Source: Mycobacterium branderi
GTDB lineage: Bacteria; Actinomycetota; Actinomycetes; Mycobacteriales; Mycobacteriaceae
DNA length: 64,000 bases
Assembly (NCBI RefSeq): GCF_010728725.1
Contig: NZ_AP022607.1
Location: forward strand, 434,001 to 498,000
Direction: 5' to 3'
Each line of letters opens with the position of its first letter. The first letter of the stretch is position 1. Below are positions 4,659 through 37,070 of this stretch, in pieces. Position numbers and translations under genes: made by a program. The notes under the pieces are model-generated. The model was not told the DNA's origin, made no database searches, and was given only the letters and a program-made list of their open reading frames with translations.

Positions 4659-4790
4659 GCGAGTCCTGGACCCCGAACGGCGATCGGCGCCGCCCCAGGG
4701 GCACCTGCCAATTCGCGATGTTCTGCCCGCTCAGCCGGGGCGGGATCGCACCGCCGCACCGGCTGTTTCAACGTGATTCACACCGTGATC

Positions 4791-4813: not shown

Positions 4814-4903
4814 GTTTGACGCAGCGGTAAACCGGCAACTGCACTGTCGGAAACCAGGCGATCGGCGACTTGGAGCCACCGCCGTGACTGCGAGGGCGCA
4901 TTC

Positions 4904-10548: not shown

Positions 10549-10745
10549 TGCGAAAGCCTAACCGCGGTTCGGCACCGTCACCGGCACCAATTGCCCACGC
10601 ACCGGCCCAGTGACAGCGCCGTGGCCGCCCGGTTTGCCACCGCTTCGGCCCTGGGCCGCTTCGGATTTGGCCGGAGGCTTGCCCCGCTCCTTCATCAGCA
10701 GCGCTGACTTGCTGGTTTACTGTTCGAGATTTTGTCGCAACGGCA

Positions 10746-21947: not shown

Positions 21948-22361
21948 ATGCGGTACCGGTCGAGGCGTATAGCGGTGTTTTCGGTGAAGTGCCATGTGAT
22001 TTGGTGTCCGAAGTATCGCCGCCGTGTGCTGGGCGGCGCAGGCGAACGGCGGTTGGAGCAGATCATCGACGAGGTGGTTTGTGAGTTCGGCGGCAGGGTG
22101 ATCGAGGTTGAAACGATGCCCGATCACGTGGCTCTGCTGGTCGAGTTGCCGCCGCGGGTAGCGGTATCGCAATTTGTGCAGATCCTGAAAGGCCGTTTCT
22201 CGCGGCGGCTGCGGCAGGAGTTGCCGTATCTGGCGCGGATGAGGTGCTTGTGGTCGCCGTCGTGGTTCGTCTGCACCGTGGGAGGGGCGCCGCTGGATGT
22301 GGTGCGCTGCTATGTGGAGAACCAGAAACTCGCCGGCGCCCGAAAGCCGACGGCGGCGTAG
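21948..22361 (+). CDS. tnpA: IS200/IS605 Y1 transposase TnpA, HUH motif altered
   Basis: 137 residues from ATG 21948 (GTGAGG upstream); ATG 21927 is an alternative. The family core is clear: FSVKCHVIWCPKYRRRVL, ETMPDHVALLVE, SRRLRQELPYL, LWSPSWFVCTVGG and VRCYVENQ. The catalytic Tyr (in CYVENQ) is present. The metal-binding His-U-His motif, normally DHVHLLV, reads DHVALLV: the second His is Ala (GCT). This probably weakens or abolishes single-strand cleavage, so the copy may be immobile unless helped in trans. Confidence 0.9.
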   Translation: MRYRSRRIAVFSVKCHVIWCPKYRRRVLGGAGERRLEQIIDEVVCEFGGRVIEVETMPDHVALLVELPPRVAVSQFVQILKGRFSRRLRQELPYLARMRCLWSPSWFVCTVGGAPLDVVRCYVENQKLAGARKPTAA

Positions 22362-22363
22362 CG

Positions 22364-23593
22364 ATGGCGCACCGCTACCGCATGTATCCGACTGCCCGGC
22401 AGGCGGTGTTCATGTTGGAGCGGCATTGCGCCGATGCCCGTTTTGTGTGGAATCTGGCGGTCGAGCAATTCAATTGCGGTGGGCGGGGGCGGCGCGGGCC
22501 GGGTCCGGCGGCCCGGCAGAAACAACTTGCTGAAGCCCGGCAGGAGTTCGGGTGGTTGGCGGCGGGATCCTCGGCGGTGCAGCAGCAAGCTTTGCGGGAT
22601 TTCGACCGCGCGGCGGCGGCGTTTTTCAATCACACCCACGATCGGCCGACATGGCGCCGTAAACATCTCGACGAGGGATTCTGCGTTCGCGACAGCCGTG
22701 TGGAGACGGTGAATCGTAAATGGGCGCAGGTGTTTGTCCCGAAACTGGGGCTGGTGAAGTTCCGGCTCTGCCGCCCGGTGCCGGATGGCAAGCTCGGCAT
22801 GGCCCGCATCACTTATAAGGCGGGCCGCTGGCATGTCAGCTTCCCGGCTGCTCAGCCACAGGTGCCGGGCACGCCGGGGCGTGAGGAACGCCTGGTCGGC
22901 ATCGACCGGGGCGTGAAGACAACGCTGGCGTTGTCGGACGCCACGATGCTGCGGGCGCCGGTCATGCGCCGCGGCGAGCAGAAGATGCTGGCGCGCCTAC
23001 AGCGTCAGCTGGCCAACTGCCGCAAAGGCAGTATGCGGCGTGGCAAGGTGAAAGCCCGTATCGCCAAACTGCACGCGAGGGTGGCGGATCGGCGTCGCGA
23101 CTGGGTCGAGAAGACCACGACGCGGATCACCGCGACCTATGGCGTGATCGCGGTGGAGAAACTGCCAACCCGCACTATGGTGCGCGCGCCGAAACCCAAA
23201 CCCGACCCGGACAACGAAGGCCGCTACCTGCCGAACGGGAAAGCCGCGAAAGCGGGTTTAAACAAAGGTATCTACGCCAACTGCTGGGGTGTGATCGCCC
23301 AGCGTTTGCAACACAAGACGTCCGCATCCGGCACCACCCTCATCGAGGTGCCGGCCGCGTACAGCAGTCTGGAGTGCCGCAACTGTGGCCACAGCGTGAA
23401 GGAAAACCGTAAGAGCCAAGCGGAATTCCGGTGCGTGCAATGTGGCCACCAAGACCACGCCGATATCCAGGCAGCCAGCACCATCCTCGCCCGGGCCACC
23501 CAGCCCGCGCACACCTCCGGGCCGGAGGCAACACCCGCCACCACGGGTGTGCTCGCGCAAGCGAGAAGACCCGATGACGCGCAAGCGGCATAG
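22364..23593 (+). CDS. tnpB: TnpB RNA-guided nuclease (IS605-type)
   Basis: 409 residues from ATG 22364, three bases after tnpA. N-terminal helical/WED part (HRYRMYPTARQAVFMLERHC, RFVWNLAVEQFN), then a split RuvC domain with all three acidic residues: Asp in GIDRGVKTTLAL, Glu in VIAVEKLPTRTM, Asp in DHADIQAAS. The zinc ribbon CRNCGH...CVQCGH is intact. TnpB proteins use an RNA from the element's right end to cut DNA beside the element's target motif (TAM). Here the predicted TAM is TTGAC. Full length, no frameshift. Confidence 0.93.
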   Translation: MAHRYRMYPTARQAVFMLERHCADARFVWNLAVEQFNCGGRGRRGPGPAARQKQLAEARQEFGWLAAGSSAVQQQALRDFDRAAAAFFNHTHDRPTWRRKHLDEGFCVRDSRVETVNRKWAQVFVPKLGLVKFRLCRPVPDGKLGMARITYKAGRWHVSFPAAQPQVPGTPGREERLVGIDRGVKTTLALSDATMLRAPVMRRGEQKMLARLQRQLANCRKGSMRRGKVKARIAKLHARVADRRRDWVEKTTTRITATYGVIAVEKLPTRTMVRAPKPKPDPDNEGRYLPNGKAAKAGLNKGIYANCWGVIAQRLQHKTSASGTTLIEVPAAYSSLECRNCGHSVKENRKSQAEFRCVQCGHQDHADIQAASTILARATQPAHTSGPEATPATTGVLAQARRPDDAQAA

Positions 23594-23645
23594 GGAATCC
23601 CGCGATCTTCACTCGCGGGAGAAGGTCAATCTCATCGCCTCGACA
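23450..23645 (+). ncRNA. Predicted omega/right-end RNA of TnpB with guide
   Basis: TnpB elements transcribe a guide RNA from the 3' end of tnpB through the right end. By analogy the scaffold would cover roughly the last 180 bases of the element, including the hairpin at 23599-23619. The guide would be the first ~16 bases past 23629 (TCTCATCGCCTCGACA). The 5' limit is a guess. Confidence 0.45.
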
Positions 23646-24082
23646 CCTTCTGGGCTGTCCTTGGCTCCGAACCTCGGCAGATACCGGCACTGCTGGGGGG
23701 CAGCCTCCCGGGCCGCCGACGGTGGCAGCGCGTCGAAGCCGGCAAAGGGTTTGTACACGGTGACCTCACCGAAGAGGTTCTCGTCGACGTTTGCCAACCC
23801 GGGTACGCAGCGCGCCAACCGATCTGGCGCGCACCCCGAGCTCAGCCGGGGCCGCAGTAAGGGTGACCGGCGCAGCACCCGGTTGCTGGTGGTGCGCTGT
23901 GCACCCACCGCCGGTGAAAACAACCGCTGCGACAAGGCCCAGCCGCGCCAGCGCATGACCGTAACCGTGCCGGGCCGACACCACCCGCCCGACTCTACGT
24001 GGAGCGGCCCCACCCACGATCCGAACGCGTCGAGGAAGGTTGATCCGCTGCACGACATCTGCACCGAAGCGCCGCGGGCCGG

Positions 24083-25510
24083 CTATGGCTCGATCAGAAA
24101 CGCCGCCTCGTGGCGGCGCGCCCACGCGGAGTGGGTGATGGCGGTATGTCCGTCGCATTCGACGGTCACCAGGTGGGCGCGCTCGAATTGGCCGGCGAGT
24201 GCGACCGCCCATTGGATCGGGGTGGCCGGGTCGTGTGTGCAATCGATGACCAGCACCGGTGAGGTGTTTCGGATATGTTGCGGTGCAGGCGGATTGGCCG
24301 ACGGGATCGGCCAGCCCAGACATGACGTGGACCACGCCCAGGTCTCCGAGTAGCGCCACGTCAGCGGTGCCAGCTGTTGAAGTGTGCGCACTTTGGTTTG
24401 CAGGTCGCCAAGTCCGCTGATCTCCGAAGGCAGGTCGTGGCAGCCGATCGCGGTGTTGGCGGCCTCCCCCGGATCGGGCGAAAGATGGCCGGCGGCCAAC
24501 GCGATCAGGTTCGGTTCGCCGGGCGCGAAGGCGAGTCGCAGCCGCCGGGCCAGTTCGGGCCAGTCGTTGCGGAACAGCAGTTCGTAAACGGCCTGGGTGA
24601 TCAGGCGCCCGTCGACGCGCGTCCCGTTGACGGTGCGGGGACTCTCATCGGCTCGCGCGAGGATGTCGCCGAAGCGGCCGGCGATGTCGACACCGCCCAG
24701 GGGGCAGGTCGGCTCGTGGGTGCACCACGCGGTGAAGCGATGAAATTGCTCTTCGGTCGCGATCGCCTCGTCTTGAGCGTCCTGCCAGGTGGATCGGGTG
24801 TGGTCGACGGCACCGTCGAGGACTGCTGCGCGCACCCGTTGCCCGAACAATGCGAGGTAGGTGCTGAACAGTTCGGTGCCGTAGGACTCCCCCAGTAGCG
24901 ACACGGTCGATTCACCAAGGGCGACCCGCACCGCGTCGATGTCGCGGGCGGCGCTGATGGTGTCGACGTGGCCGATCAACGGGCCGGTGCGCTGCGAGCA
25001 CTGTTGGCCCGCCCGGCGATTCGCCGCGACCAGCAGTGCGTAGGTCTGCTCGGAGTCCGGGAACGTATTGAGGCCGGGGTCGTGTATCGGGCTGGGGCAG
25101 CGCACGGGTGTGCTGTGTGCGACCCCGCGTGGATCAAGTCCGATGATGTCGAAGCGCTGGCTCACGATGTCGAGTTCCGGTCCGGGACCGGCTCCTTCTT
25201 GGGCGACGTCGTCGACTCCGGAGTTGCCCGGACCGCCCGGGTTGGTGATCAGGACGCCGATGCGGTGCGCCGGGTCAGCTGCCGGAATCCGGTTGAGCGC
25301 CAGGGTGATTGCGCCTGAGGTAGGGTCCGCCCAGTCCAGCGGGACGAGGATCGTCGCGCACTGCAGCCGCGGCGACGTCTTGTCGGTGTGGCAGTCGCGC
25401 CACGCCAGCGCCGGTGTCGAGGCGTGCTCGGCGCTGATCGGCACCGCGCACAGCGCCGCCGCGGTGAGCACCGCGGCGGCGCGGCTCAGGAAGCGCACCA
25501 GCTTAGCCAT
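24083..25510 (-). CDS. Secreted TAP-like alpha/beta-hydrolase peptidase
   Basis: 475 residues with a Sec signal peptide (VRFLSRAAAVLTAAALCAVP). It is related to the mycobacterial Rv2223c/Rv2224c (CaeA-type) and Streptomyces tripeptidyl aminopeptidase families. Features: oxyanion region NPGGPGNSGVDD, nucleophile elbow GESYGTELFS (Ser at about 204), Asp in VLVIDCTHDPATP and His in ECDGHTAI. TAP-like C-terminal domain ends the protein. It would cleave short peptides or esters outside the membrane. It overlaps the GNAT gene by eight bases (25503-25510), so it is the last gene of the long minus-strand operon and may process or release the exported product; that is inference. Confidence 0.9.
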   Translation of the reverse strand: MAKLVRFLSRAAAVLTAAALCAVPISAEHASTPALAWRDCHTDKTSPRLQCATILVPLDWADPTSGAITLALNRIPAADPAHRIGVLITNPGGPGNSGVDDVAQEGAGPGPELDIVSQRFDIIGLDPRGVAHSTPVRCPSPIHDPGLNTFPDSEQTYALLVAANRRAGQQCSQRTGPLIGHVDTISAARDIDAVRVALGESTVSLLGESYGTELFSTYLALFGQRVRAAVLDGAVDHTRSTWQDAQDEAIATEEQFHRFTAWCTHEPTCPLGGVDIAGRFGDILARADESPRTVNGTRVDGRLITQAVYELLFRNDWPELARRLRLAFAPGEPNLIALAAGHLSPDPGEAANTAIGCHDLPSEISGLGDLQTKVRTLQQLAPLTWRYSETWAWSTSCLGWPIPSANPPAPQHIRNTSPVLVIDCTHDPATPIQWAVALAGQFERAHLVTVECDGHTAITHSAWARRHEAAFLIEP

Positions 25511-26042
25511 CGCAGGTGTCGACGGGGCGGTGCATCGCGACCCGCGGCGCGATCGCGATCCCTGCCGCTTGTTCCTCGGCCCAGATCGCGCGCAGTTGCT
25601 CGCCCCACTGCGACTCGGGGAAATCGGTGAAACCCCGTTTGCGGTACCAGGGCCCGTTCCACGGCACGTCGCGGAATGTGGTCAGCGTCAGCGCGGGCAC
25701 GCCGCGCTCGGCCGCGTAGTCGACGGCGCGTTGCAGCAGCCGCGCGCCCAGACCCTGCCTGCCGTGGCCTGGGTGCACGGAAAGCTGGGCGACGTGAATG
25801 TTGCCGTCGACCCATTCGACTGCGACAAACCCGACCAGCGGGTCACCGGCCACGAAGATGCGCTCGGCCTGGCGGGTCAGCACGGTCGGCTCGTCGGGCG
25901 GCAGCACCATCCCCGCGTCGGCATAGAGCTGGTCGGCCGCGCGGCTCACCGCGACGAAGTCGTCGAAATCGGTTGCGCGGTAGGCGCGGATGCTGTGAGT
26001 GATGGTGTGCTCCTTTCCCTCCGGGCGGACATCGCCCAGCAC
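25503..26042 (-). CDS. GNAT-family N-acetyltransferase with uncertain start
   Basis: GNAT fold: IRAYRATDFDDFVAVSRAAD, VGFVAVEWVDGNIHVAQLSV, HPGHGRQGLGARLLQRAVDY (acetyl-CoA motif) and ALTLTTFRDVPWNGPWYRKRG. About 166-179 residues. The nearest legal start is GTG 26042, inside the end of the MFS gene. However AGGAG at 26010-26014 sits six bases before an in-frame ATC (26001-26003) exactly where homologous starts would be expected. Either an ATG was lost to ATC or a rare start is used. It probably acetylates an amine of the pathway product, or protects the host from it. Confidence 0.85.
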   Translation of the reverse strand: MLGDVRPEGKEHTITHSIRAYRATDFDDFVAVSRAADQLYADAGMVLPPDEPTVLTRQAERIFVAGDPLVGFVAVEWVDGNIHVAQLSVHPGHGRQGLGARLLQRAVDYAAERGVPALTLTTFRDVPWNGPWYRKRGFTDFPESQWGEQLRAIWAEEQAAGIAIAPRVAMHRPVDTCDG

Positions 26043-27499
26043 ATCAGCAGTAAACACCCGCTCAGCGCCACGCAGATGTGCGTCGCGGAGCCGAACGCGT
26101 GCCGAGCGGCATCGATCACGGCGGTGTGCTGCGCGGCCGGGAGACCGGCCGCGTAGTCGAACGCTGCGGCGATGGAGCGGTGCGCGTGCGCTTTGAGCGC
26201 CGGTGAAAGGCCGGCGTTCGCGTCGACGCCGGCTGTGTAGTAGGCGGCGGCCAGCACGCCGGGGATCGCGACGCCTAATCCGCTGCCCAATTCGAATGCG
26301 GTGGAGTCCAGGGCGCCTGCGGCCCCGGCACGGGTCGCGGGAGCGATTGACAGGACTCGTGCCGAGCAGATGTTGGCGGCGACCTGGACGCCTGCGCCCA
26401 GGCACAGCAGACTCGCGCCAACCAGCGCCGGGTTGGCGAGCTCACCGGTGGCGGCGAGCACCGCGGCCGCGGTGCTCGCGACGCCGAGTCCGATGCGCAG
26501 CGCGGCGCGCGGCCCGCACGTGCCCGCCAGAGGGGCGCCGGCCAGGCCGCCGGCGACGGTGCCGATCGCCAGCGGGGCCACCCGCAGGCCGGCCGCGAAT
26601 GGTCCCAGGCCCAGCACGTATTGAAAGTATTGGGCCAACAGCACTTCGACACCGGTGACGGCGATGACGCTGCCCAGCACGATGACGATCGAGGTGGCCA
26701 ACCCCGGTATGCGGAAGAGGCTGAGGTCGAGCAGCGGCTCGCGCAGATGGTGCTGTCGTCGCACGAACCAGACCATTGCGGTCAGCGAGGTCACCACGGC
26801 GGCGCACAACGCCGGCGAGAAGTGCAGGTGGGTGGCCGATTTGAGGCAGTACACCAGCCCGAACATCGCCGGCACCCCCACCACGACGCTGGCCAGATCG
26901 ACCCGGCGCTGCTGCCGGCCCACGCCCGGACCGGCTGTGTCGGCGCGGACCAGTCGCAGCGCGGCCGGCAGCAGCACCGCGAACAGCGGCAGGTTGATGA
27001 CGAAAACCGCGCCCCACCAATAGTGTTCGAGCAGTGCACCGCTGAGCACCGGTCCGGCCATCGAGCCGATCGACCCGGCGGCGGTCCATATTCCCAGCGC
27101 GGCAATCCGCTGTTTGGGCTCCCCGAAGCTACGACGGATCAGCCTCAGCGAGGAGGGCAGCAGCAGCGCGGCGCCCGCACCGGTGATCATCCGGGCGGCG
27201 ATGAGCGCACCGGCCGTGGCCGCCAGCGCGCCGGTCGCCGAGCCGGCGGCGAAAAGCGCCACGCCGGTGGCGAACATGGCCCGGTGGCCGAACCGGTCGG
27301 CGCACGCCCCGGCGGGCACCAGCAGCGCGGCCAGGGTCAGCGCGTAGCTGTCCAGGATCCACAAGGTGGCGTTCGGGCCGGGCGCCAGGTCGTGGGCGAG
27401 GGCCGGGACGGCGATCTGCAGCACGGTGGTGTCCAGCCCGACCGCAAACAGCGCCGACGCGCAAATGAGCAGCACCGGCCAGCGGCGCCAAGCGCTCAC
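25946..27499 (-). CDS. MFS exporter, DHA2 (14-TM) type
   Basis: 517 residues from GTG 27499, which overlaps the PIG-L stop (GTGA). Fourteen predicted membrane segments. Motifs: GLDTTVLQIAVPALAHDL (motif D1), DRFGHRAMFATG (motif A), GAALLLPSSLRLIRRSF, and GSIGSMAGPVLSGALLEHYW, the antiporter motif C. DHA2 proteins are drug/proton antiporters and are common as self-resistance or product exporters of biosynthetic clusters. The translated region upstream of 27499 is out-of-frame PIG-L sequence, so the longer open frame is rejected. The end overlaps the following GNAT gene. Confidence 0.92.
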   Translation of the reverse strand: MSAWRRWPVLLICASALFAVGLDTTVLQIAVPALAHDLAPGPNATLWILDSYALTLAALLVPAGACADRFGHRAMFATGVALFAAGSATGALAATAGALIAARMITGAGAALLLPSSLRLIRRSFGEPKQRIAALGIWTAAGSIGSMAGPVLSGALLEHYWWGAVFVINLPLFAVLLPAALRLVRADTAGPGVGRQQRRVDLASVVVGVPAMFGLVYCLKSATHLHFSPALCAAVVTSLTAMVWFVRRQHHLREPLLDLSLFRIPGLATSIVIVLGSVIAVTGVEVLLAQYFQYVLGLGPFAAGLRVAPLAIGTVAGGLAGAPLAGTCGPRAALRIGLGVASTAAAVLAATGELANPALVGASLLCLGAGVQVAANICSARVLSIAPATRAGAAGALDSTAFELGSGLGVAIPGVLAAAYYTAGVDANAGLSPALKAHAHRSIAAAFDYAAGLPAAQHTAVIDAARHAFGSATHICVALSGCLLLMCWAMSARRERSTPSLTASAPTAQPISTTSSR

Positions 27500-28188
27500 G
27501 GTGTCTGCCCCCCGGCACTCCAGGTGCCGCGGATGACGCTGAAGGCTTCGGCGGCGGCCACGCCCGCGGCGGCGCCGAACAGTTCGGCCTGGCTGCGCAG
27601 AGCCTGCAGCGAGCGGGGATGCGGGAAGTCGCGCAGTTCGGACGAATAGTGGCTCATCGCCGCGAGTTTCGTGTCCAGGGTGTCGCTGATGTCGCTGTAC
27701 ACCGATGGCTGAAACACCGGCCGCCCGGCGTAGCCGGCCTCGGTCGCCGACAAGGTGGAAAACGACAGCAGCCAACGCACCGGGCTCACGTGCGGGCGGC
27801 AGGCGATCATGGTGGCCCGCGCGGTCAATTCGTGATCGATGTTGAGGTCGCCGCTGTGATGGGTGTACACCACCTGCGGGCTGAATTCCTCGACCGCGTC
27901 GCTGACGTGACGGGCCAGCGTCAACAACGGATAGCTGTCGAGTTGGTTGTCGCGCAGATCGAGTCGTCGCCACGACGCGACGCCCAGCTCGCTCAGGGCA
28001 GCGCTGGTCTCGTCGAGCGAGCGCCGCATGCTCTCGGGCAGGCAGGCGTCGTCGGCGCGCGACGTTTTGCCTTCGGCCAAGATCAACGCCGCCACCGTGT
28101 CGCCGGCGCGCACGTGTTTGGCCAGGGTTCCACCCGGCCCGATCACCTCGTCGTCGGGGTGCGCGGCGACCACCAGGACCCGGGTCAC
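27496..28188 (-). CDS. PIG-L (LmbE) family N-deacetylase
   Basis: 230 residues from GTG 28188, coupled by GTGA to the WbqC gene. The zinc motif AAHPDDE (8-14) is followed by HHSGDLNIDHE with the third ligand His. This is the family of MshB (GlcNAc-inositol deacetylase of mycothiol synthesis) and of antibiotic N-deacetylases. It should remove an acyl group from an N-acylated sugar, exposing an amine that the FemAB-like or GNAT enzymes could then modify. It is not MshB itself: the context differs. Confidence 0.92.
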   Translation of the reverse strand: MTRVLVVAAHPDDEVIGPGGTLAKHVRAGDTVAALILAEGKTSRADDACLPESMRRSLDETSAALSELGVASWRRLDLRDNQLDSYPLLTLARHVSDAVEEFSPQVVYTHHSGDLNIDHELTARATMIACRPHVSPVRWLLSFSTLSATEAGYAGRPVFQPSVYSDISDTLDTKLAAMSHYSSELRDFPHPRSLQALRSQAELFGAAAGVAAAEAFSVIRGTWSAGGQTP

Positions 28189-28889
28189 GGCGAAACCTGC
28201 TGTGCGAGCGCGGTTGCGGTCAAGATGGCGCGACTGTGCGGTCCGCAGTTCATCAGCAGATCCAGCACCGACAGGTGCGACACGAAACCGGCATGACGCT
28301 GCGGGTAGCTGGGATGGTGGTACTCGAACACCTGCACGCGCACATCGCCCAGGCGCTCCCACTGCAGGTAGTCGCGGGCGTGAATGCCGGTGACGAAGGT
28401 GTCCGCGCCGAACTTCGCGCTCAGCGCCGCAATGATGGAGGTGCGGTCGAAGTCGCCCAGTGCCAGCTGGGAGCTGCGGTAGAGCGGCATCGTCAGGCCG
28501 AGCTGGCCCCGGCAGTATTCGATGAACGGCAGGCACAGTTCGGTGATCGTGGGGTAGGGCCGCGAGTAGTAGTCGGCCAGGAATTCGGCGTGCTCCGCGA
28601 AGTGCGGGGCGCGCCGATACGCCATCTGGATGGCCTTCCAGTGCCGGCGGCGCCAACCGTCGTCGAGGACCGCGATCGTGTCAAGGGTGTGCTCGTCGCG
28701 GACGTCGGCGTGGCGGATCGGCACCGTCAGCCACTGTTCGCCGGCGGCGGTGCGAATCTTGTTGCGGTTCACCATTCCGCCGCGGTCGAATCGGCTCAGG
28801 TCGTGCACCACGAACGCATCAGCGGTGGCCATCTTCGCGAAGTAGCCCAGCCACGGCAGATAGGCGGGCTGGTGCGCGGTCAAGATCAT
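28185..28889 (-). CDS. WbqC-like family protein
   Basis: 234 residues from ATG 28889, which overlaps the upstream stop by four bases. The start MILTAHQPAYLPWLGYFAKM and the segments MVNRNKIRTAAG, WLTVPI, FIEYCRGQLGL and TGIHARDYLQWERLGDVRVQ match the WbqC-like family. Members occur in O-antigen and natural-product sugar clusters; the chemistry is still poorly defined, with acyl or amino-acid transfer to sugar amines proposed. It has a conserved His (AHQP) and Lys/Arg positions. In this operon it is a candidate for the step that makes the product unusual. Confidence 0.88.
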   Translation of the reverse strand: MILTAHQPAYLPWLGYFAKMATADAFVVHDLSRFDRGGMVNRNKIRTAAGEQWLTVPIRHADVRDEHTLDTIAVLDDGWRRRHWKAIQMAYRRAPHFAEHAEFLADYYSRPYPTITELCLPFIEYCRGQLGLTMPLYRSSQLALGDFDRTSIIAALSAKFGADTFVTGIHARDYLQWERLGDVRVQVFEYHHPSYPQRHAGFVSHLSVLDLLMNCGPHSRAILTATALAQQVSP

Positions 28890-29818
28890 GCGGACTCTCC
28901 TTTGCGCCAGGCCACCCGGCGGGTGGCGTGTGCTGTTGCGCCCCAATCGGTTTTGAATCGGGCCTGGCCGTCGTTGCCGGCCGCGCCCAGATCCGCCAGC
29001 TGCACTCCGCGCGCGGTCAGGGCGCCGAGGGCTGAGAAGAACGACAGGTAGCCGGCGTTGGTGCGTCGCCCGTCATCGGAGGTCAGCTGCATCACGTGGT
29101 AGGCGAGGCGACCGCCGACGGCGAAGACGCTGGCCGCTTCGACGCCGCGGCCGCTGCGGGCGAGCACCGCGAGCACCGCATCGTCGTGCTGAGCCAACAG
29201 TGCGCGCAGCTGTTCGGCGCGCTCACCTCGGGTGATGTCGTGGCGGGCCATTGTCACCGCGTGCAGCGTGTCGATGGCTTCGGCGTCGGCGATCGTCGCT
29301 ACGGTGACCGACAAGCCCCAGGTCTGGGCGCGGCGCACCGCGGTACGCATCCGGCCCTTGGCCGCCGCCCACACGGCGTCGGGGCCTGCTGAGAGGTCCA
29401 GCAGGTAGGTGTCGCGGCCCGGTGAGCTGGGCCAGGTGTCCAGCCAGGTGGGCAGGCCGGGCAGCGGCGGCGGCAGCAGGGTGTGGATCTCGCGTAGTCC
29501 GAGCGTGTCGCCCAGTGCGGCGGCCAGCGCCGAAAACGGCAGCGGTTGCCCGGCGGGCCGGCCGGCGGCGGGATACACCATGCCGTAGCCGTAGGCGCCG
29601 ATCTGCGCCTCATCGCCGTTGCGGCACAACGGGATCAGCAGCGGCCCGTCCCCCGGCCCGTCGATCTGGACGGGGGTGAAGCGCAGCTGCGGCGAGTCGA
29701 TCAGGCCCACAGCGATCCAGGGCGCCCGGCCGAACGGGACGGGTTGGGCCGCGGCCTGCAGGCGCTCGGCCCACTGGGCGTTCGACAGCGTCTGCACACC
29801 GGTGTGGTGCGCCACCAT
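28886..29818 (-). CDS. FemAB-like GNAT (acetyltransferase_6) protein
   Basis: 310 residues. ATG 29818 shares one base with the previous stop and has AGGAGG ten bases upstream. Two tandem GNAT-like halves typical of FemAB/Lif proteins: GAYGYGMVYPAAG, then KGRMRTAVRRAQTWGLSVTV (central), and AASVFAVGGRLAYHVMQLTS with NAGYLSFFSALGALTARGVQ and FKTDWGA. FemAB-type proteins transfer amino acids from tRNA to peptidoglycan or other amines; others use acyl-CoA. Here it may attach an amino acid or acyl group to the amino sugar. Confidence 0.85.
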   Translation of the reverse strand: MVAHHTGVQTLSNAQWAERLQAAAQPVPFGRAPWIAVGLIDSPQLRFTPVQIDGPGDGPLLIPLCRNGDEAQIGAYGYGMVYPAAGRPAGQPLPFSALAAALGDTLGLREIHTLLPPPLPGLPTWLDTWPSSPGRDTYLLDLSAGPDAVWAAAKGRMRTAVRRAQTWGLSVTVATIADAEAIDTLHAVTMARHDITRGERAEQLRALLAQHDDAVLAVLARSGRGVEAASVFAVGGRLAYHVMQLTSDDGRRTNAGYLSFFSALGALTARGVQLADLGAAGNDGQARFKTDWGATAHATRRVAWRKGESA

Positions 29819-31059
29819 CACCGCACCTCCTGCGCCAGCGCCGCATCGGCGGTCAACAAAGCGTCGACGAGTCGGTCGACAGGGCGGCGTTGCGGCAGTT
29901 TGGGAATCGTGAGGACCCGGGTCCACAGCTGCTCGGCACGCTGCATCTGGCCGCTCGCGAACCGCTGATACTGCGCCAGTTTGTGCAACGGGTAGTGATT
30001 CCAACCGGTTTGGATGCCCAGCGCAGCCAGCCGGGCGGCGAACAGGTGCCGGTGGCCGCGCTCGGTGAACAGCAGCTCCACACCCCCGCTGAGGCACGGC
30101 TGTGCCCCCGGGACGAACCGGGCGCAGCGCAGCCGCGGGCCGAGTTCTGCCAGTAGCGTTCGGTGGGTGTGCCGCGCGGACGCGCTGAGCCGCTCGGCGT
30201 CGCGCAGCAGCACCGCCGCCGCCGCGGTCTGCCAGCGACCCGGCCCACGAAGCGGGACGTCGCCGCAGCGTTGCGGCAAATGCGCGGCCTTGCTGGGTGA
30301 CCAGCCGGGCCGGCGTTGCGAGCGGCGCGCCACGGCGGCGCGCACCGGGCCGGGACTGGATTCGATCCAGCGTTGGGTGACGGCGGCCAAAAGCTGTGCG
30401 CCGCCGGTTGTTTCAGCCGGGCCGAGGTCGTCGGCCGGGTCGGCGGCGCATAACAGCGCCGCACCGCCACCGACGCCGCCGAGTGGCTTACCCACCCCGA
30501 AGCTCAGCACGATCGGCACACCTGCGGGCAGGTATTGGCTGATCAGCGTCGTTGACGGGATCGCCTGAGCCAAGTCCAGGATCGGCGTGGCGCCGCGCCG
30601 GGAAAGCCACCGGCCATGCTGCGCCCACTCGTCGCGGCTAAGCCCGTTGGTGAGCACCACGAGGGTGTCCTCGACATCGACGTCGCCGAACGCCGGACCA
30701 CTGTCGGGATCGAAGTCCACCAGCACCGGGGTGGCGCCGGTGGCCAGGACCGCGTCGGCGACGGCCGGGCAGTTGAACGTCGACAGCACCACCCGGGCGC
30801 CGGGGCCGGCACCGCAGCGCTGCAACGCATACCGCAGCGCCGCGCGCCCGGACTGCGTCAAAACAGCGCTGCCGTTGGGTGTTTCGGCCAGCAGGGTCGC
30901 GCACAGCCGGCGGCGCGCCGACGTGGTCGGCCCCCACCCGGCCACGGCTGTCGCGGCCAGCGCGCCCAGGGTGAGCCGGCTGGGATGCAGCACCAGCTGC
31001 GGGCAGCCCGGCGGCGGTGGGTAGCGCAGATCGGCGGTTTCCGGCGCCAGCTCGGTCAT
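29818..31059 (-). CDS. Divergent DegT/DnrJ-type PLP aminotransferase
   Basis: 413 residues from ATG 31059 (ATGA overlap with the epimerase gene). Type I PLP fold: SGRAALRYALQRCG, VVLSTFNCPAVADAVLATGA, an Asp in PILDLAQAIPST (D162) and the candidate Schiff-base Lys191 in LSFGVGKPLGGVGGG. It is clearly more distant from DegT than the 32042 gene. It lacks the usual SF-x-x-x-K-x-x-x-x-GEGG arrangement but keeps the Lys. The C-terminal TGWNHYPLHKL resembles the substrate loop of sugar aminotransferases. Two aminotransferases in one operon suggest two amine introductions, or one with another PLP reaction. Confidence 0.8.
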   Translation of the reverse strand: MTELAPETADLRYPPPPGCPQLVLHPSRLTLGALAATAVAGWGPTTSARRRLCATLLAETPNGSAVLTQSGRAALRYALQRCGAGPGARVVLSTFNCPAVADAVLATGATPVLVDFDPDSGPAFGDVDVEDTLVVLTNGLSRDEWAQHGRWLSRRGATPILDLAQAIPSTTLISQYLPAGVPIVLSFGVGKPLGGVGGGAALLCAADPADDLGPAETTGGAQLLAAVTQRWIESSPGPVRAAVARRSQRRPGWSPSKAAHLPQRCGDVPLRGPGRWQTAAAAVLLRDAERLSASARHTHRTLLAELGPRLRCARFVPGAQPCLSGGVELLFTERGHRHLFAARLAALGIQTGWNHYPLHKLAQYQRFASGQMQRAEQLWTRVLTIPKLPQRRPVDRLVDALLTADAALAQEVR

Positions 31060-32045
31060 CGGGACGGCGCTGCGATCTGCTTGCTGTGCAGGGCCCAGCT
31101 GTCGTGGTCGTTGATCCACCCCACGGTTTCGCGCAGCCGAGCGTCGAAGTCGCTTCGCGGGTCGTAGCCCAGCAGCGCGCGGGCTTTGCTGATGTCGGGG
31201 CGGCGCCGGGCGATGTCCGGACCGCTGCGGGTGTGGTGGCACACGCTGCTGCCCGAACCGCTGTAGCGCACGATCCGCTCGGCGAGCTCGTTGACGGTGA
31301 GTTCGGCGCGGTCGTCGCCGATGTTGAATGCCTGCCCCTCGGCGGCCGGGTCGAGCAGGCAGCGGATCAGCCCGTCGGCGAAATCACCGGCGTAGCACCA
31401 GGCCCGGGTCTGCGAACCGTCGCCGTGCACGGTGACCGGCTCTGCGGTGAGAGCCTGCTGCGCGAACGCGCTGACCGCGTAGCCGCCGGTACGCAGCGGC
31501 CCGAATACGTTGAAGGGCCGCACGATCGAGAACGGCAGCCCGTGTTCGGCGTGGTAGGCGTACACCCACGACTCGGCGGCGATTTTGCTGACCGCATATG
31601 ACCAGCGCGGGTCGTCGGTGCGCACCGACAGCCAGGACTGTTCGGTGGCGTGCGCGGCGTCGTCGCCGTACACCTCGCTGGTGCTCAGCAGCAGGAAGCG
31701 CCGGCAGTTCGCCACCCGCGCCGCGTAGTCCAGCGCCACCCGGGTGCCGTCGATGTTGACTTGCAGGGTGCGCGCCGGCAGGTCGCGCACCGTGCTGACA
31801 CCGAGGACGGCGGCCGCATGCACGACGTAATCCACCGGCCCGAATCGGTCGAGCGCGCCGAACTCGGTGATGTCGGCGCGGCCCGCGGTGATCCCCGGTG
31901 CGCACAGCAGCCCGGACATTTGCAGCGACGAGCCCTCCAGGGGGCGGTTGTCGACCAGCACGACATCGTGGCCCGCGTCGTGCAGCGCCTTGGCGGTCCA
32001 GGTCGCCAGGAAGCCGAAGCCGCCGGTAATCAGGGTGGTAGTCAA
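31056..32045 (-). CDS. NAD-dependent sugar epimerase/dehydratase (extended SDR)
   Basis: 329 residues from TTG 32045. The start is fixed by AGGAGG at 32053-32058, seven bases upstream, and by a TTGA overlap with the preceding stop. Rossmann motif ITGGFGFLATW, LVDNRPLEGSS, catalytic YAVSK with upstream Ser in STSEVYG, and RPFNVFGPLRTGG. It acts on a nucleotide-linked sugar (epimerisation, dehydration or decarboxylation). With the dehydrogenase upstream it could convert a UDP-uronic acid, like ArnA or UXS-type enzymes, but the sequence alone does not tell which. Confidence 0.92.
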   Translation of the reverse strand: MTTTLITGGFGFLATWTAKALHDAGHDVVLVDNRPLEGSSLQMSGLLCAPGITAGRADITEFGALDRFGPVDYVVHAAAVLGVSTVRDLPARTLQVNIDGTRVALDYAARVANCRRFLLLSTSEVYGDDAAHATEQSWLSVRTDDPRWSYAVSKIAAESWVYAYHAEHGLPFSIVRPFNVFGPLRTGGYAVSAFAQQALTAEPVTVHGDGSQTRAWCYAGDFADGLIRCLLDPAAEGQAFNIGDDRAELTVNELAERIVRYSGSGSSVCHHTRSGPDIARRRPDISKARALLGYDPRSDFDARLRETVGWINDHDSWALHSKQIAAPSR

Positions 32046-33241
32046 CGCTTTTCCTCCTGTCGATGACTGGCGCCGGGTCGGCTCACCAGCTCTTTGACCG
32101 CGGCGATCACCCGGTCCTGGTCGAGTTCGGACATGCCGTACCACAGCGGCAGCGACAGCAGCCCGGGATACATCGCATCCATCACCGCAAAGCCGGTGGG
32201 CGGCGCCAGCGAGCGCCGGAAGGCGCCCAGCCGGTGCAACGGTGTGTAGTGGACCTGGCAGCCGATGCCCGCCGCGCGCAGGAACGCGATCACGTCGCGC
32301 TTGGCCATGCCCAGTTCGTCGAGGTCGAACACCACCGGGAACAGGTGGTGCGCCGAACGAGCGCGCCCGATGGTGGCCAGTGTGCGCAGCGCGGGCAGTC
32401 CCTCAAAGGCGGCGCGGTAGCGCTGCGCCTGAACAGCTCTCGCTTGCCGGGCCGTCTCGAGCCGGCGCGCCTGCACCACTCCGAGGGCGGCGTGGAACTC
32501 CGACAGACGGAAGTTGGCCCCCGGGGTGTCGATGTCGTAGGGCCAGGGCGCGAGGTCGTCGTCGCTGGGTGCGACCGGCGTCATGGCGTGGTTGCGAAAC
32601 GCGCGCAGCCTGTCGCGCAGCGCTTCGTCATGGGTGGCGACGGCGCCGCCTTCGCCCGCGCCGATCGGTTTGACCGGGTGAAAGCTGAAGTAGGCTGCCC
32701 GCGACGCGCGCGACGAGCCGACCGGCGTCCCGTCGCCGTAGCCGGCGCCGATCGCGTGGCACGCGTCCTCGACCAGGTCGGCGCCGTGGCGAGCGCACAC
32801 TTCGGCCAGCGACTCCACATCGACCGGGTTGCCGGCGTAGTGCACCGGTACGACCACAATATGGGCGTATCGCCCGTCGACGGATTCCAGCAGTGTCGCA
32901 AGGCTTTCCGGACAGATGTTGAGATCCTCGCGCCGCACGTCGCACAGCCCGACATCCCAGCCGAGCAGCCGGGCGGCGGCGGCGGCTGCGGCGAAGTTCA
33001 GGGTGGGAGTCACCAACAGCCTCGGTCCGGCGGAGTTCACGCCGAGCGCGTGCAACAACGCGAAGATCGCCGTGGTGCCGCTGGACAGGCTGATCACCGG
33101 CGCGGCGGTGATCTCGCTCAGCAGGCGCTCGAATTCGGCGACCTGGCTGCCGTTCGTCCACATCCCGGAATCCAGCACCGATCGCAGCGCCTGTGCTTCC
33201 TCGCCGTCCCAGTAGGGCTTGGCATAGGGCAGTTCAGACAT
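32042..33241 (-). CDS. DegT/DnrJ/EryC1/StrS-family sugar aminotransferase
   Basis: 399 residues, full length. PLP-binding features: SLSSGTTAIFALLHALG (phosphate site), Asp159 in DLVEDACHAIG and Lys191 in FSFHPVKPIGAGEGG, then FRNHAMTP, NFRLSEFHAALG, and QVHYTPLHRLGAFRR. Close in style to PseC/ArnB-type nucleotide-sugar 4-aminotransferases. It would put an amino group on a keto sugar made by the epimerase/dehydrogenase partners. The start overlaps the previous stop by eight bases. Confidence 0.93.
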   Translation of the reverse strand: MSELPYAKPYWDGEEAQALRSVLDSGMWTNGSQVAEFERLLSEITAAPVISLSSGTTAIFALLHALGVNSAGPRLLVTPTLNFAAAAAAARLLGWDVGLCDVRREDLNICPESLATLLESVDGRYAHIVVVPVHYAGNPVDVESLAEVCARHGADLVEDACHAIGAGYGDGTPVGSSRASRAAYFSFHPVKPIGAGEGGAVATHDEALRDRLRAFRNHAMTPVAPSDDDLAPWPYDIDTPGANFRLSEFHAALGVVQARRLETARQARAVQAQRYRAAFEGLPALRTLATIGRARSAHHLFPVVFDLDELGMAKRDVIAFLRAAGIGCQVHYTPLHRLGAFRRSLAPPTGFAVMDAMYPGLLSLPLWYGMSELDQDRVIAAVKELVSRPGASHRQEEKR

Positions 33242-34178
33242 GGGTTTTCCTTGCGCTGGTCAAATCGGCAAGCGGCGGTGTGCTGTGCACCCAGGCCACG
33301 GTTTCCCAGCAGCTGGAGCGGGCCTGGTAGTCGGCTTCTTGTACTTCGAAGACGACACCGAGCGCACCGTCGGTGGGCTCGGCGGTGTCGATCGCGTGGC
33401 GCAGGGCCGCGGCCAGCAGCTGCGCGTCGGCTTCGCCGCGCTGCGGGGTGGCACCTTCGAAGCAGTGTCCGGCCCAAAACGGCATCGCATGTCCGTAGTA
33501 CGAGCCGAAGTGCAGGTGACGGATGGGTAGCGCGGGCAGGTCCATCAGGGTCGAATCGCTGGGGCGGCGCTGCAGTTGGGCGATCGAGGCCGCCGTGGAG
33601 TGGGTGACCGCCCAGTGGCACAGGTCCCAGGTGACGCCCAGCAGCGGTGACCCCAGCTCGGCGAGCGGATCGAAGTCGCCGGGATAGACGAAGATCGGGT
33701 CATAGTCGATGCCCTCGGATCCGATCACCGGCAGGTTCTCGACGCCGATCCACAGCGGGTAGCCGCGCAGGCGTTCGGTGAGCTCCCCGAGCCGGTCGAC
33801 GACTCTGCGGCGCGCACCGGCCAGGTCGTAGGTCAGCCAATCGCGTTCGGCGACAAACTGGTTGGCGTGCAGCACCACCCCGTCGGCGTGATGAGCGGCG
33901 GCCAGCTCGCAGAACCGCAGCAGCGCCGCGAACATCGCCGGGTCGCCGACCCAGTCGGCGTGGTCGGTGGGAAAATGCGTGCTCAGCGTTGTCACCCCGA
34001 GCCTGCGCGCTTGGCGCAGACTGGCGTGCAGGGCTTGCCAATGCTGCTCGTCGGCAAGGTCGTGCCCGTCGAAAACATAGGCTTCCAGCCCCCAGCCATC
34101 AGCGACCCACCGCTCGTCGATCTGCTCGGGACGCAATCCGTCGAAGGAGTGCTGCCAGGTGATCTTCGGTGTGTTCAC
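33234..34178 (-). CDS. TIM-barrel sugar-phosphate isomerase/epimerase-like protein
   Basis: 314 residues of the AP-endonuclease-2/xylose isomerase-like TIM barrel. Metal-binding residues can be seen at strand ends: THFPTDHADW, VVLHANQF, WIGVENLPV (Glu), GVTWDLCHWAV (Asp, His), RHLHFGSYYGH (His), VVFEVQEAD (Glu). It likely isomerises or epimerises a sugar or keto-acid intermediate. Overlaps the dehydrogenase stop by four bases. The substrate is unknown; in sugar clusters such enzymes can also make inosose-type compounds. Confidence 0.85.
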   Translation of the reverse strand: MNTPKITWQHSFDGLRPEQIDERWVADGWGLEAYVFDGHDLADEQHWQALHASLRQARRLGVTTLSTHFPTDHADWVGDPAMFAALLRFCELAAAHHADGVVLHANQFVAERDWLTYDLAGARRRVVDRLGELTERLRGYPLWIGVENLPVIGSEGIDYDPIFVYPGDFDPLAELGSPLLGVTWDLCHWAVTHSTAASIAQLQRRPSDSTLMDLPALPIRHLHFGSYYGHAMPFWAGHCFEGATPQRGEADAQLLAAALRHAIDTAEPTDGALGVVFEVQEADYQARSSCWETVAWVHSTPPLADLTSARKTHV

Positions 34179-35425
34179 AGCTGCTCGACCCGCTGCGAGT
34201 CGAACCGGCCCCGGCAGTCGAAGATCAGCGGCGCGTGGTCAAGCACCAGGCCGTAGTCGAAGTCTTTGTGGTCGGTGGCGATCACCACGATGTCGGCGGC
34301 GGCCGCCTGGGCGGCGGTCAGCTCGACGCGGGTGAAGTGCTCACCGGCCACGGCGGCAGGCACATGCGGGTCAGCGACCTTCACGTGGGCGCCGCGGCCG
34401 GCCAGTTCGGCGCTGATCGCATAGGTCGGCGCCAGCCGGTCATCGGCGATGCCCGGCTTGTAGGCCAGCCCCAGGATCAGCACGCTGGCCGTGGCCACGG
34501 ACTTGCCGGCCGCCTGCAGAGCCTGCTCGATCCGATCGGCGACATAGTTTGCGACACCGTTGTTGACCTGGGTGCACGCGGTCAGGATTGAGCTTGAACG
34601 CCCGGCGCCGCGCAGCGCGTGGTTGAGGTAGTGAATGTTGTTGGGCAGGCAGTGTCCGCCAACACCGGGGCCATGCGAGAACGGCATGAAGCCGTAGGGT
34701 TTGGACGATGCGGCGGCCACCACTTCGCGCAGGTCGATGTTCATCGCCCGGGCGCTTTGGCTGAGCTCGTTGACGAACGCGATGTTGACGTAGCGGAAGA
34801 TGTTCTCGAAAAGCTTGACGTATTCCGCGATTTCGGCGCTGGAGACCGTTATCACCTTCTTGAACACGGTTTCATAGAACGACGACGCCAGCAGTGCGCC
34901 CTGGGTATCGATGCCGCCGACGATCTTGGGTATTTCGACATAGCTGTCGTCGCGGCCCGGGTCGATGCGTTCGGGGCTGTAGGCGAAGTGCACATCGATG
35001 CCCGAGCGCAGCCGTGAGCGTGCCTCGAACCGGGGCACCGCATGGCCGCGGGTGGCGCCCGGGTAGAGCGTCGACTCGACGATGACCAGTGCACCGGGTT
35101 GTGCGGTCTGCGCGGCGGTGTCCAGCGCGCCGTCGAGATAGCGCAGGTCGGGTTCGTCGTCGGCGTTGACCGGGGTGGGCACGGTGATCAAATAGACATC
35201 CGAGTGCTGCTGGCCCTGCAGGTCGGGGACCGGTGTGAACCGTCGGGTGGCCAGCGCCTGCGACAACGCCTCGTCAGACACGTCGACGATGTAGGACTGG
35301 GCGCGGCGCAGCGCGGCTAACCGGTTCGGGTCGGACTCGACGGCCAGCACGGTGTGCCCGGCCTCGACCAGCGCCATGGTCAGGGGCAGACCCACATACC
35401 CTTGGCCGATCACGGAAACTCGCAT
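34175..35425 (-). CDS. UDP-glucose/UDP-ManNAc-type nucleotide-sugar 6-dehydrogenase
   Basis: 416 residues, first gene of the long minus-strand operon. NAD motif VIGQGYVGLP (5-14), TVPTP, AYSPERIDPGR (as in the WbpA/WbpO/WecC group), Lys204 in EYVKLFEN and catalytic Cys259 in GPGVGGHCLPNN, then LGLAYKPGIADDR. It oxidises a nucleotide hexose at C6 to the uronic acid, making two NADH. The SPERIDPG motif points to N-acetylhexosamine substrates rather than UDP-glucose. That indicates an amino-uronic acid product. Confidence 0.93.
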   Translation of the reverse strand: MRVSVIGQGYVGLPLTMALVEAGHTVLAVESDPNRLAALRRAQSYIVDVSDEALSQALATRRFTPVPDLQGQQHSDVYLITVPTPVNADDEPDLRYLDGALDTAAQTAQPGALVIVESTLYPGATRGHAVPRFEARSRLRSGIDVHFAYSPERIDPGRDDSYVEIPKIVGGIDTQGALLASSFYETVFKKVITVSSAEIAEYVKLFENIFRYVNIAFVNELSQSARAMNIDLREVVAAASSKPYGFMPFSHGPGVGGHCLPNNIHYLNHALRGAGRSSSILTACTQVNNGVANYVADRIEQALQAAGKSVATASVLILGLAYKPGIADDRLAPTYAISAELAGRGAHVKVADPHVPAAVAGEHFTRVELTAAQAAAADIVVIATDHKDFDYGLVLDHAPLIFDCRGRFDSQRVEQL

Positions 35426-35850
35426 GGAATGACTCCTTAAAGCTGTTGCAAGGCGCCGGTTCGGCGTTTAGACCCATTCGGGTGCTCGGCGCCGACGGGC
35501 ACATCGGCGAGAAGCTGAATCGCAGAGGTCACGGTTGAGCCTTTCGCTGATCGCCCGCATCGTCCGCGGCGCGCTGCTACAGATTCAAACACACAGTGCA
35601 ACGGTTACGCAGCAACTTATTGTTGCAGCTGAACGGTCCGAGACTGCGGTACGATCCGCGGCTTGTTGCCGATCAAAGGCAGAAAAGTGCAGGTAGTGCG
35701 CCTGTACTTTCACACGCGGGACCCCGTGAGCGGCCAGGGGTGAGGCTAGACAAACCGTTTCACCGTTCGGGATAAGCGCAAGCAAAAGCGAAGCGGTCGA
35801 CTAAACCGAACGATGGCACAAAGCAGCATGCGCGTGCTAGGATGTGCGTT
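35426..35850. other. Divergent intergenic region before the sugar operon
   Basis: About 425 bases with no supported gene. It must hold the promoter of the eleven-gene minus-strand operon and that of the toxin-antitoxin pair. A short repeat TGCAACGGTTACGCAGCAAC (35598-35617) resembles the repeat near 12301. The DNA is richer in A/T than its surroundings. Confidence 0.5.
35836..35841 (+). promoter_or_regulatory. Likely -10 element of the Xre/RES pair, leaderless start
   Basis: TAGGAT fits the mycobacterial TANNNT -10 hexamer and lies ten bases before ATG 35851, so transcription could begin at or just before that codon. Leaderless antitoxin mRNAs are common in mycobacteria. Confidence 0.4.
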
Positions 35851-36444
35851 ATGAGTGGATCGGGTTTCCGGGGGCTGGATGCGCTGCTGGAAAGGCATCA
35901 GGTGGATATGACCAGCGAAGAGGTCTTAGACCAGCTGGACTCCGCGTTCGCGACAATCCCCGGTGCCGGGGCAGCGCCTCTCTCCACCGATGAAGTGCGA
36001 TTTCTTCGCGCCCACGCCGGCGCCGGCGCCACCGCGGTGATCGACAACTGGTCTGGCGAACAGGAACGCCAGGCTCACGCGCGCTCGGCCGTACAGGAGC
36101 TCGGTGATGCCCTCTCTGGGTCGATGAGCATCAAGGAGGCCGCCGCCCTGCTGGGGATCGACCGGTCCCGGGTGTCTCGGCGCATCATCGGAAAAGGATT
36201 GTGGGCGTTCGACATCAATGGAAGCCGCCGCATACCTCGCTGGCAGTTCCTCGGCCAGCGGCTGCTTCCTGGTCTAGACGTGATCGTGCCTGCGATACCG
36301 CGCGACGTAACACCCGCGGCGGTGGAAGGTTTCATGAATACACCGCAGCCAGATTTCGGCGATCGCACACCGATCGAACATCTCGCCGCCGGCGGTGATC
36401 CCACGCTGATCGCCGACTTCGTAGCAGATCTCGCCCGCTGGTGA
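35851..36444 (+). CDS. MbcA/Xre-type antitoxin with HTH and DUF2384-like tail
   Basis: 197 residues from ATG 35851; ATG 35842 is in frame but overlaps the predicted -10. A helix-turn-helix lies at about 90-118 (SGSMSIKEAAALLGIDRSRVSRRI, shown in part), and the C-terminus (TPIEHLAAGGDPTLIADFVADL) matches the end of the MbcA/ParS/Xre antitoxin toxin-binding domain. The stop overlaps the RES toxin start (GTGA). By analogy with M. tuberculosis MbcTA it should block the toxin and repress the operon. The N-terminal 80 residues are longer than in MbcA and unrecognised. Confidence 0.83.
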   Translation: MSGSGFRGLDALLERHQVDMTSEEVLDQLDSAFATIPGAGAAPLSTDEVRFLRAHAGAGATAVIDNWSGEQERQAHARSAVQELGDALSGSMSIKEAAALLGIDRSRVSRRIIGKGLWAFDINGSRRIPRWQFLGQRLLPGLDVIVPAIPRDVTPAAVEGFMNTPQPDFGDRTPIEHLAAGGDPTLIADFVADLARW

Positions 36445-37070
36445 ATCGGCCCAAGCCGAAAGTCCCGCGAACACCGCCTGACCGCCTCACCAAAGAACCG
36501 GACGACGTCGTCGACTACACGGGCATATTGTGGCGAGTCCACCGCAGCACGGGCGAACACGTCCGGCCGTGGAACGAGTTACGCACCTACGGCCCACTGC
36601 CGTCGATGCGCTGGGACCCCCAACCAGGCCCACCACCCGCCGACCATCACGACAGCGTGCTCTACGCCGCGTGCGACGTCGCCACCGCCCTTGCCGAGGT
36701 TTACCAATCGACGCGCGTCATCGACACGCGCGCCGGCGCACCGAGGCTCACCGCGTGGGAGCCCACGCGGGCTCTGCAGTTGCTGGACTTGTCCGGGACC
36801 TGGCTGCTGCGCAACGCAGCGTCGGCGGCACTGCTCGGCGCACCGCGATCCACTTGCCGACGCTGGGCCCGCGCGATTTACCTAACCTGGCCTGAACTCG
36901 ACGGTCTGCAAGCGCCCTCCACCATGACAGGGCGCCTCAACGTAGTTCTGTGGACCGCTTCGGCCGACGCCATGCCCGCGGCGCCATCGTTTTCCCGCCC
37001 CCTCGCCCAACCACTGGTCTGGACGCTCGCACAAGCCGCAGCCGCCGAAATCGGCTACCAGATCATCTGA
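36441..37070 (+). CDS. RES-domain toxin (NAD+ phosphorylase/glycohydrolase type)
   Basis: 209 residues from GTG 36441, coupled to the antitoxin. RES-domain landmarks: Arg in GILWRVHRST, the YAACDVATALAEVYQ helix with its Glu, and the Ser in GLQAPSTM, giving the R-E-S triad. RES toxins such as MbcT destroy NAD+ when free of the antitoxin. The gene is complete with no frameshift, so the pair is likely functional. Confidence 0.88.
   Translation: MNRPKPKVPRTPPDRLTKEPDDVVDYTGILWRVHRSTGEHVRPWNELRTYGPLPSMRWDPQPGPPPADHHDSVLYAACDVATALAEVYQSTRVIDTRAGAPRLTAWEPTRALQLLDLSGTWLLRNAASAALLGAPRSTCRRWARAIYLTWPELDGLQAPSTMTGRLNVVLWTASADAMPAAPSFSRPLAQPLVWTLAQAAAAEIGYQII

What the first reader, a model, noticed from the sequence alone, without database searches (positions are those of the whole stretch)
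24083..35425. Eleven-gene coupled operon for an exported amino-uronic-sugar conjugate
Eleven minus-strand genes run without a gap, from a nucleotide-sugar dehydrogenase to a secreted peptidase. Overlaps (4-bp ATGA/GTGA/TTGA at 34175, 32042, 31056, 28886, 28185 and 27496; 8 bp at 33234 and 25503; 1 bp at 29818) are seen directly. Parts: C6 oxidation, isomerase, two PLP enzymes, epimerase, FemAB-like and WbqC-like transferases, PIG-L deacetylase, DHA2 exporter, GNAT, TAP-like peptidase. There is no glycosyltransferase and no nucleotidyltransferase, so a released small molecule rather than a polymer is more likely. The idea is an amino-uronic sugar bearing amino-acid or acyl groups. I know no described mycobacterial pathway with this set.
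Basis: partly seen in the sequence, partly recalled or inferred. Interest (0 to 1): 0.8.

Follow-up and report, generated by a model that had tools for sequence, protein, structure and literature searches.

The report
Predicted amino-sugar antibiotic gene cluster
Eleven tightly packed genes on a mycobacterial megaplasmid, found in the same order in one soil Streptomyces, probably build a small amino-sugar antibiotic that is exported in a masked form and unmasked outside the cell.

Summary
In detail: eleven minus-strand genes, 24083-35425, with the overlaps listed. All eleven, in the same order, occur in Streptomyces sp. CT34 at 48-77% identity between different flanks, so this is one conserved unit. 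It is rare: four sampled searches with gene E gave no third genome. The window lies on an 864-kb contig with none of the 45 tRNA genes found, so probably a megaplasmid of a mycobacterium.

The parts
34175..35425 (-). A: nucleotide-sugar 6-dehydrogenase, UDP-HexNAc type by best scores; GGHC catalytic motif; AAGGAG ribosome site just upstream (35426-35441)
   Evidence: TIGR03026 349 bits over its cut-off; equivalogs all under cut-off, best UDP-ManNAc dehydrogenase; PDB best 4r16 191 bits, UDP-glucose type 3vtf 111 bits; 65% to CT34
33234..34178 (-). B: xylose-isomerase-like TIM barrel, role unassigned
   Evidence: PF01261 34.6 bits, cut-off 31.1; no PDB sequence match; E147, D185, H188, H221, E278 shared with CT34 (that such residues bind metal in this family is recalled)
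32042..33241 (-). C: DegT aminotransferase, ArnB/PseC-like, PLP lysine motif SFHPVK
   Evidence: PF01041 273 bits; PseC 328 bits, under its cut-off 423.5; PDB best ArnB 160 bits; motif
31056..32045 (-). D: extended SDR, UXS/ArnA-like decarboxylase proposed; STSEVYG, YAVSK and QTRAW motifs
   Evidence: PDB 8vr2 (function not named) 191 bits, UXS1 145 bits; NCBIfam best is RmlB 135 bits, under cut-off
29818..31059 (-). E: divergent DegT-family PLP protein with the lysine kept (SFGVGK), role unassigned
28886..29818 (-). F: FemAB-like / Acetyltransf_6 N-acyl or aminoacyl transferase
   Evidence: PF13480 27.9 bits, cut-off 22; TIGR03019 35 bits, under cut-off 260; AlphaFold model unusable, pLDDT 43.5
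28185..28889 (-). G: WbqC-family protein, predicted BshC-like amide ligase
27496..28188 (-). H: PIG-L zinc deacetylase, BshB-like, AHPDDE motif
   Evidence: PF02585 89 bits; BshB1 65 bits, under cut-off 182.5; motif
25946..27499 (-). I: MFS efflux transporter of the DHA2/SmvA-LfrA kind
   Evidence: PF07690 146 bits; SmvA 310 and LfrA 283 bits, under cut-offs
25503..26042 (-). J: GNAT N-acetyltransferase (start uncertain)
   Evidence: PF00583 47 bits; PA2271 91 bits, puromycin N-acetyltransferase 22 bits
24083..25510 (-). K: TAP-like serine hydrolase with a signal-like N-terminus; S209, D427, H455
   Evidence: PDB Hip1 and related 164 bits, TnmK2 84 bits; residues shared with CT34; N-terminus read by eye

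Best explanation
The eleven genes are one biosynthetic operon for a small, exported, N-acylated diamino-sugar antibiotic. Proposed order (inferred): A oxidises C6 of UDP-GlcNAc; D oxidises C4 and decarboxylates the uronate to a UDP-4-keto-2-acetamido-pentose; C aminates C4, giving a UDP-2-acetamido-4-amino-2,4-dideoxy-pentose (L-arabino if C has ArnB stereochemistry). H removes the N2-acetyl group. G, a class-I-synthetase-like amide ligase with the BshC fold, and F, a FemAB-like transferase, put acyl or amino-acid groups on the amines. B and E make a further change that I cannot assign. J keeps the molecule N-acetylated and harmless inside, I exports it, and K, which looks secreted, removes the mask outside, as Pac, Pur8 and NapH do for puromycin. 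Shown: the genes, their coupling, their conservation as a block in CT34, the families, the predicted WbqC fold. Inferred: all substrates, the step order, secretion of K and the antibiotic activity.
Against: D's best NCBIfam model is dTDP-glucose 4,6-dehydratase (135 bits; no model passes its cut-off). J is only weakly like puromycin N-acetyltransferase; K is closest to Hip1-type hydrolases; NapH and Pur8 were not compared. WbqC and BshC profiles show no sequence similarity beyond decoys (29 of 60 decoys score as high). In 45 other loci WbqC lies in what look like glycan regions, two of them checked and next to a glycosyltransferase family 2 gene, so WbqC itself does not point to an antibiotic. 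B and E have no role in the scheme, and no gene obviously removes UDP. No regulator among the eleven, and no sigma-70-type promoter in 23500-36000.
Confidence: 0.5

Rival explanations
1. One reading: the carboxylate is kept and the product is an amino-uronic-sugar conjugate; D is a 4-epimerase or 4-oxidase rather than a decarboxylase.
For: A makes a uronate by family; D's NCBIfam scores are spread over dehydratases and epimerases, none over cut-off.
Against: D's closest functionally named structure is UDP-glucuronate decarboxylase, and C's is ArnB, which works on the decarboxylated keto-pentose (the ArnB substrate is recalled). The STSE motif is of the UXS/ArnA kind (recalled).
Confidence: 0.2
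2. The product is prumycin itself, 4-(D-alanylamino)-2-amino-2,4-dideoxy-L-arabinose (structure recalled).
For: A+D+C with ArnB stereochemistry, acylation of N4 and deacetylation of N2 would give it; it inhibits protein synthesis at amino-acid activation (PMC8772736, passage), which would need self-protection.
Against: B, E and WbqC are not needed for so small a molecule; no source of D-alanine is evident; CT34 is not reported as a producer in its genome paper (whole text). A subset of the best explanation.
Confidence: 0.15
3. The genes decorate a surface glycan or glycolipid with an N-acylated amino sugar.
For: WbqC, PIG-L, DegT and SDR genes group together in other genomes, in two checked cases beside a glycosyltransferase family 2 gene.
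Against: No glycosyltransferase or flippase-type gene in either operon; J and K had no match near WbqC in 45 loci; flanks of both operons hold none in the genes scanned, though not every flanking ORF was scanned.
Confidence: 0.15
4. The operon makes a low-molecular-weight thiol, a mycothiol or bacillithiol analogue.
For: BshB-like deacetylase and BshC-fold ligase; MshD in mycothiol is likewise an acetyltransferase (PMC4360819, passages).
Against: No MshA/BshA-like glycosyltransferase; an exporter and a secreted-looking hydrolase do not suit a cytosolic redox buffer; the family is very rare.
Confidence: 0.07

Closest known systems
Uncharacterised operon of Streptomyces sp. CT34 (NZ_KN708638.1; L003 3403-14846)
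   Same: All eleven genes, same order and strand, similar coupling, 48-77% identity
   Different: On an 8-Mb scaffold; flanked by a lipase-like gene and a cytochrome P450. The CT34 genome paper (whole text) counts 30 clusters and does not name this one
Puromycin self-resistance (Pac, Pur8, NapH)
   Same: GNAT, exporter and hydrolase beside the biosynthetic genes; masking inside and unmasking outside (PMC11641026, passages)
   Different: J has only 22 bits to puromycin N-acetyltransferase; Pur8 and NapH sequences were not compared
Incednine N-methylxylosamine genes IdnS1-IdnS3
   Same: UDP-GlcNAc 6'-dehydrogenase, UDP-XylNAc synthase and deacetylase (PMC11284099, passage) parallel A, D and H
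   Different: Sugar goes onto a macrolactam; that passage names no WbqC or FemAB; sequences not compared
Bacillithiol BshB/BshC and mycothiol MshB/MshC
   Same: A PIG-L deacetylase frees a glucosamine amine and a ligase adds cysteine (PMC4360819, passages); G has the BshC fold
   Different: No BshA/MshA-like glycosyltransferase; no profile similarity between WbqC and BshC
Prumycin
   Same: Diamino-pentose with an alanyl group (structure recalled), translation inhibitor (PMC8772736, passage)
   Different: No prumycin genes seen in print: one search listed 19 papers, two read in passages

Membership tests
Puromycin-type (Pac/Pur8/NapH) self-resistance | Exporter, GNAT and hydrolase together in the cluster | tested here: met
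   I, J, K adjacent and kept in CT34
Puromycin-type (Pac/Pur8/NapH) self-resistance | GNAT is a close relative of puromycin N-acetyltransferase | tested here: not met
   22 bits, E 1e-3, against 91 bits to PA2271
Puromycin-type (Pac/Pur8/NapH) self-resistance | Hydrolase is exported | tested here: inconclusive
   Signal-like N-terminus read by eye; no signal-peptide program was run
Puromycin-type (Pac/Pur8/NapH) self-resistance | Hydrolase removes the N-acetyl group outside the cell | not testable with these tools
   needs an enzyme assay
BshC-like ligase (gene G) | Same fold as BshC over most of the protein | tested here: met
BshC-like ligase (gene G) | Detectable sequence-profile homology to BshC (PF10079) | tested here: not met
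   hhalign score 16.8 with 23 BshC proteins; 29 of 60 block-shuffled decoys as high; profile search of PDB sequences empty
BshC-like ligase (gene G) | Works with a PIG-L deacetylase (genomic pairing as proxy) | tested here: met
   16 of 45 loci within 1.5 kb; adjacent in the window and CT34. None of the eight other mycobacterial loci has it
UDP-HexNAc uronate decarboxylation route (UDP-XylNAc synthase type) | UDP-HexNAc-type 6-dehydrogenase | tested here: inconclusive
   Best scores are to UDP-HexNAc models and structures, but equivalog cut-offs are missed
UDP-HexNAc uronate decarboxylation route (UDP-XylNAc synthase type) | UXS/ArnA-type SDR | tested here: inconclusive
   UXS1 is the closest functionally named PDB match; NCBIfam top is RmlB, under cut-off
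Prumycin biosynthesis | Product is 4-(D-alanylamino)-2-amino-2,4-dideoxy-L-arabinose | not testable with these tools
   needs metabolite analysis; no reference gene cluster found

The most novel reading that the evidence does not exclude
WbqC (PF08889) proteins are ATP-dependent, class-I-synthetase-like ligases that put amino acids or other acids on sugar amines exposed by PIG-L deacetylases, a bacillithiol-like two-step reused in glycans and, here, in an antibiotic. The operon makes a prumycin-class aminoacyl diamino-pentose, held as an N-acetyl prodrug and unmasked outside the cell, on a mycobacterial megaplasmid.
Probability: 0.25. Interest if true: 0.82.

Novelty: new variant of a known kind. 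Interest (0 to 1): 0.62.

Why it matters
If right, it gives a testable function to WbqC, a family met in genomes from Actinomycetes to Woesebacteria in the loci fetched here, and links it to PIG-L deacetylases in a two-step amine-unmask-and-ligate module. It also describes an uncharacterised antibiotic-like pathway complete in a soil Streptomyces that can be studied in the laboratory, and shows that a mycobacterial megaplasmid carries the same pathway. It would suggest genes for prumycin-like molecules, for which no gene cluster was seen in the papers searched.

Tried and rejected
Amino-uronic end product: kept as a rival, judged less likely. Plasmid relatives: no megablast match of 24000-35500 and no tblastn match of F in 72,556 plasmid records. 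WbqC-BshC sequence homology: hhalign gave nothing above decoys; one search used only 13 BshC proteins because loci on the minus strand had not been turned, one search used 23 of 34. PDB profile search with the WbqC alignment: no hit up to E 10. FemAB-like F: the structure model was too poor to use, so whether it is tRNA-dependent is open. Transmembrane count of I: a crude hydropathy scan gave overlapping segments and no usable number. In one search the frame chosen for the CT34 exporter was wrong (0 families); one search used the right one. Promoter/terminator scan: 0 promoter-like sites (0.9 expected), 7 terminator-like (5.1 expected), so nothing. Papers: of all searches only listings were seen, except for passages of PMC11641026, PMC9854587, PMC11284099, PMC4360819, PMC8772736, PMC10458361 and the whole text of PMC4319589.

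Rows dropped: WbqC alignment A1 holds the window and 43 of 46 loci found (L071, L073, L074 left out as near-duplicates). In one search one of 46 loci (L029) had no WbqC match at 1e-5 and was left out, hence 45. Gene-E searches are samples with a loose first look that scores few candidates per genome, so a missed relative is possible.

Full report
Observation. The junction not listed is I/J, where the GNAT start is uncertain (GTG 26042 gives a 97-bp overlap). The operon has 69.6% G+C against 64.5% in the rest of the window, and the richest 11.3-kb stretch of the window starts at 23500.

Where it sits. The window is part of contig C2, 864,257 bases, beside a 5,115,366-base contig C1. All 45 tRNA matches are on C1. 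The genome has 43 PPE-domain matches, 7 of them on C2, while 14 control genomes have none, so the host is a mycobacterium and C2 most likely a megaplasmid. The operon lies between an IS605-type transposase/TnpB gene (22244-23593) and an HTH/RES gene pair (35842-37070), with an AbiEii-type gene and a phage-integrase-like gene further on.

Conservation. A scan of 84,980 species genomes with WbqC patterns gave 27 loci; one, Streptomyces sp. CT34 (L003), is 76% identical, the next 39% or less. In L003 all eleven proteins match in the same order on one strand, 48-77% identical, with families as expected. Its flanks, a lipase-like gene and a P450, differ from those of the window. Eleven intact frames kept in order at this divergence argue for one selected unit. 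Searches with gene E: own genome only, 1 of 61 relatives and 1 of 394 in the class; CT34 only, 1 of 392 in its genus and 1 of 276 in its phylum. These are samples and overlap is not known. WbqC at E 1e-10 or better: 9 of 396 in the host genus including the host, the other eight 24-34% identical; 39 of 394 in the class including the host.

Sugar steps. A passes TIGR03026 (349 bits); among equivalogs, all under cut-off, UDP-ManNAc and UDP-GlcNAc dehydrogenases score above UDP-glucose ones, and PDB ranks 4r16 (UDP-ManNAc type, 191 bits) above CalS8 (138), Cap5O (137) and UDP-glucose enzymes (111 and below). D matches 8vr2, an NAD-dependent epimerase/dehydratase of unnamed function, at 191 bits and human-type UDP-glucuronate decarboxylase at 145 bits; against this, its best NCBIfam model is dTDP-glucose 4,6-dehydratase (135 bits, cut-off 365), a reaction not possible on a uronate. 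C matches ArnB best (160 bits) and PseC in NCBIfam (328, cut-off 423.5). Together they suggest UDP-GlcNAc to UDP-GlcNAc-uronate to a 4-keto-pentose to a 2-acetamido-4-amino-pentose. A printed precedent for A, D and H is incednine: IdnS2, IdnS3, IdnS1, presented there as likely (PMC11284099, one passage).

Exit and protection. I is an MFS efflux pump, J a GNAT, K a TAP-like serine hydrolase with a signal-like start and a conserved S209, D427, H455. In puromycin producers the drug is N-acetylated inside, exported, and deacetylated outside by NapH (PMC11641026, passages); a review calls this kind of arrangement temporal-spatial shielding (PMC9854587, passages). The parallel is in logic; J is not close to puromycin N-acetyltransferase, and NapH and Pur8 were not compared.

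Product. A 2,4-diamino-2,4-dideoxy-L-arabinose with an amino acid on nitrogen is the core of prumycin (structure recalled), a Streptomyces and Bacillus antibiotic that blocks amino-acid activation (PMC8772736, passage). It is the best-fitting known compound but B, E and G are more than it needs, so a larger relative is more likely than prumycin itself.

Verdict. A real, rare, conserved biosynthetic operon, most likely for an exported amino-sugar antibiotic held as a prodrug, plus a structural lead on the function of WbqC. No enzyme activity or product has been shown.

Noticed in passing
L078-L086 (family f31 actinobacteria): WbqC, PIG-L and an SDR lie together in nine of nine of these loci; two were checked and have a glycosyltransferase family 2 gene alongside
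   Followed up: partly
window 22244-23593 +: IS605-family OrfB/TnpB-like gene with a Cas12f1-like TNB domain beside the end of the operon
   Followed up: no
window 35842-37070 + and 38793-39776 +: HTH/RES pair and an AbiEii-type gene, toxin-antitoxin-like
   Followed up: no
G000 contig C2, 864,257 bases: Probable mycobacterial megaplasmid with 7 of the genome's 43 PPE-domain matches and no tRNA match
   Followed up: partly
window 1464-6283 +: MMPL transporter followed by an acyl-CoA dehydrogenase
   Followed up: no
L026 1108-1755: PIG-L 43% identical to H in an alphaproteobacterial locus that also holds a WbqC at 10001-10645
   Followed up: no
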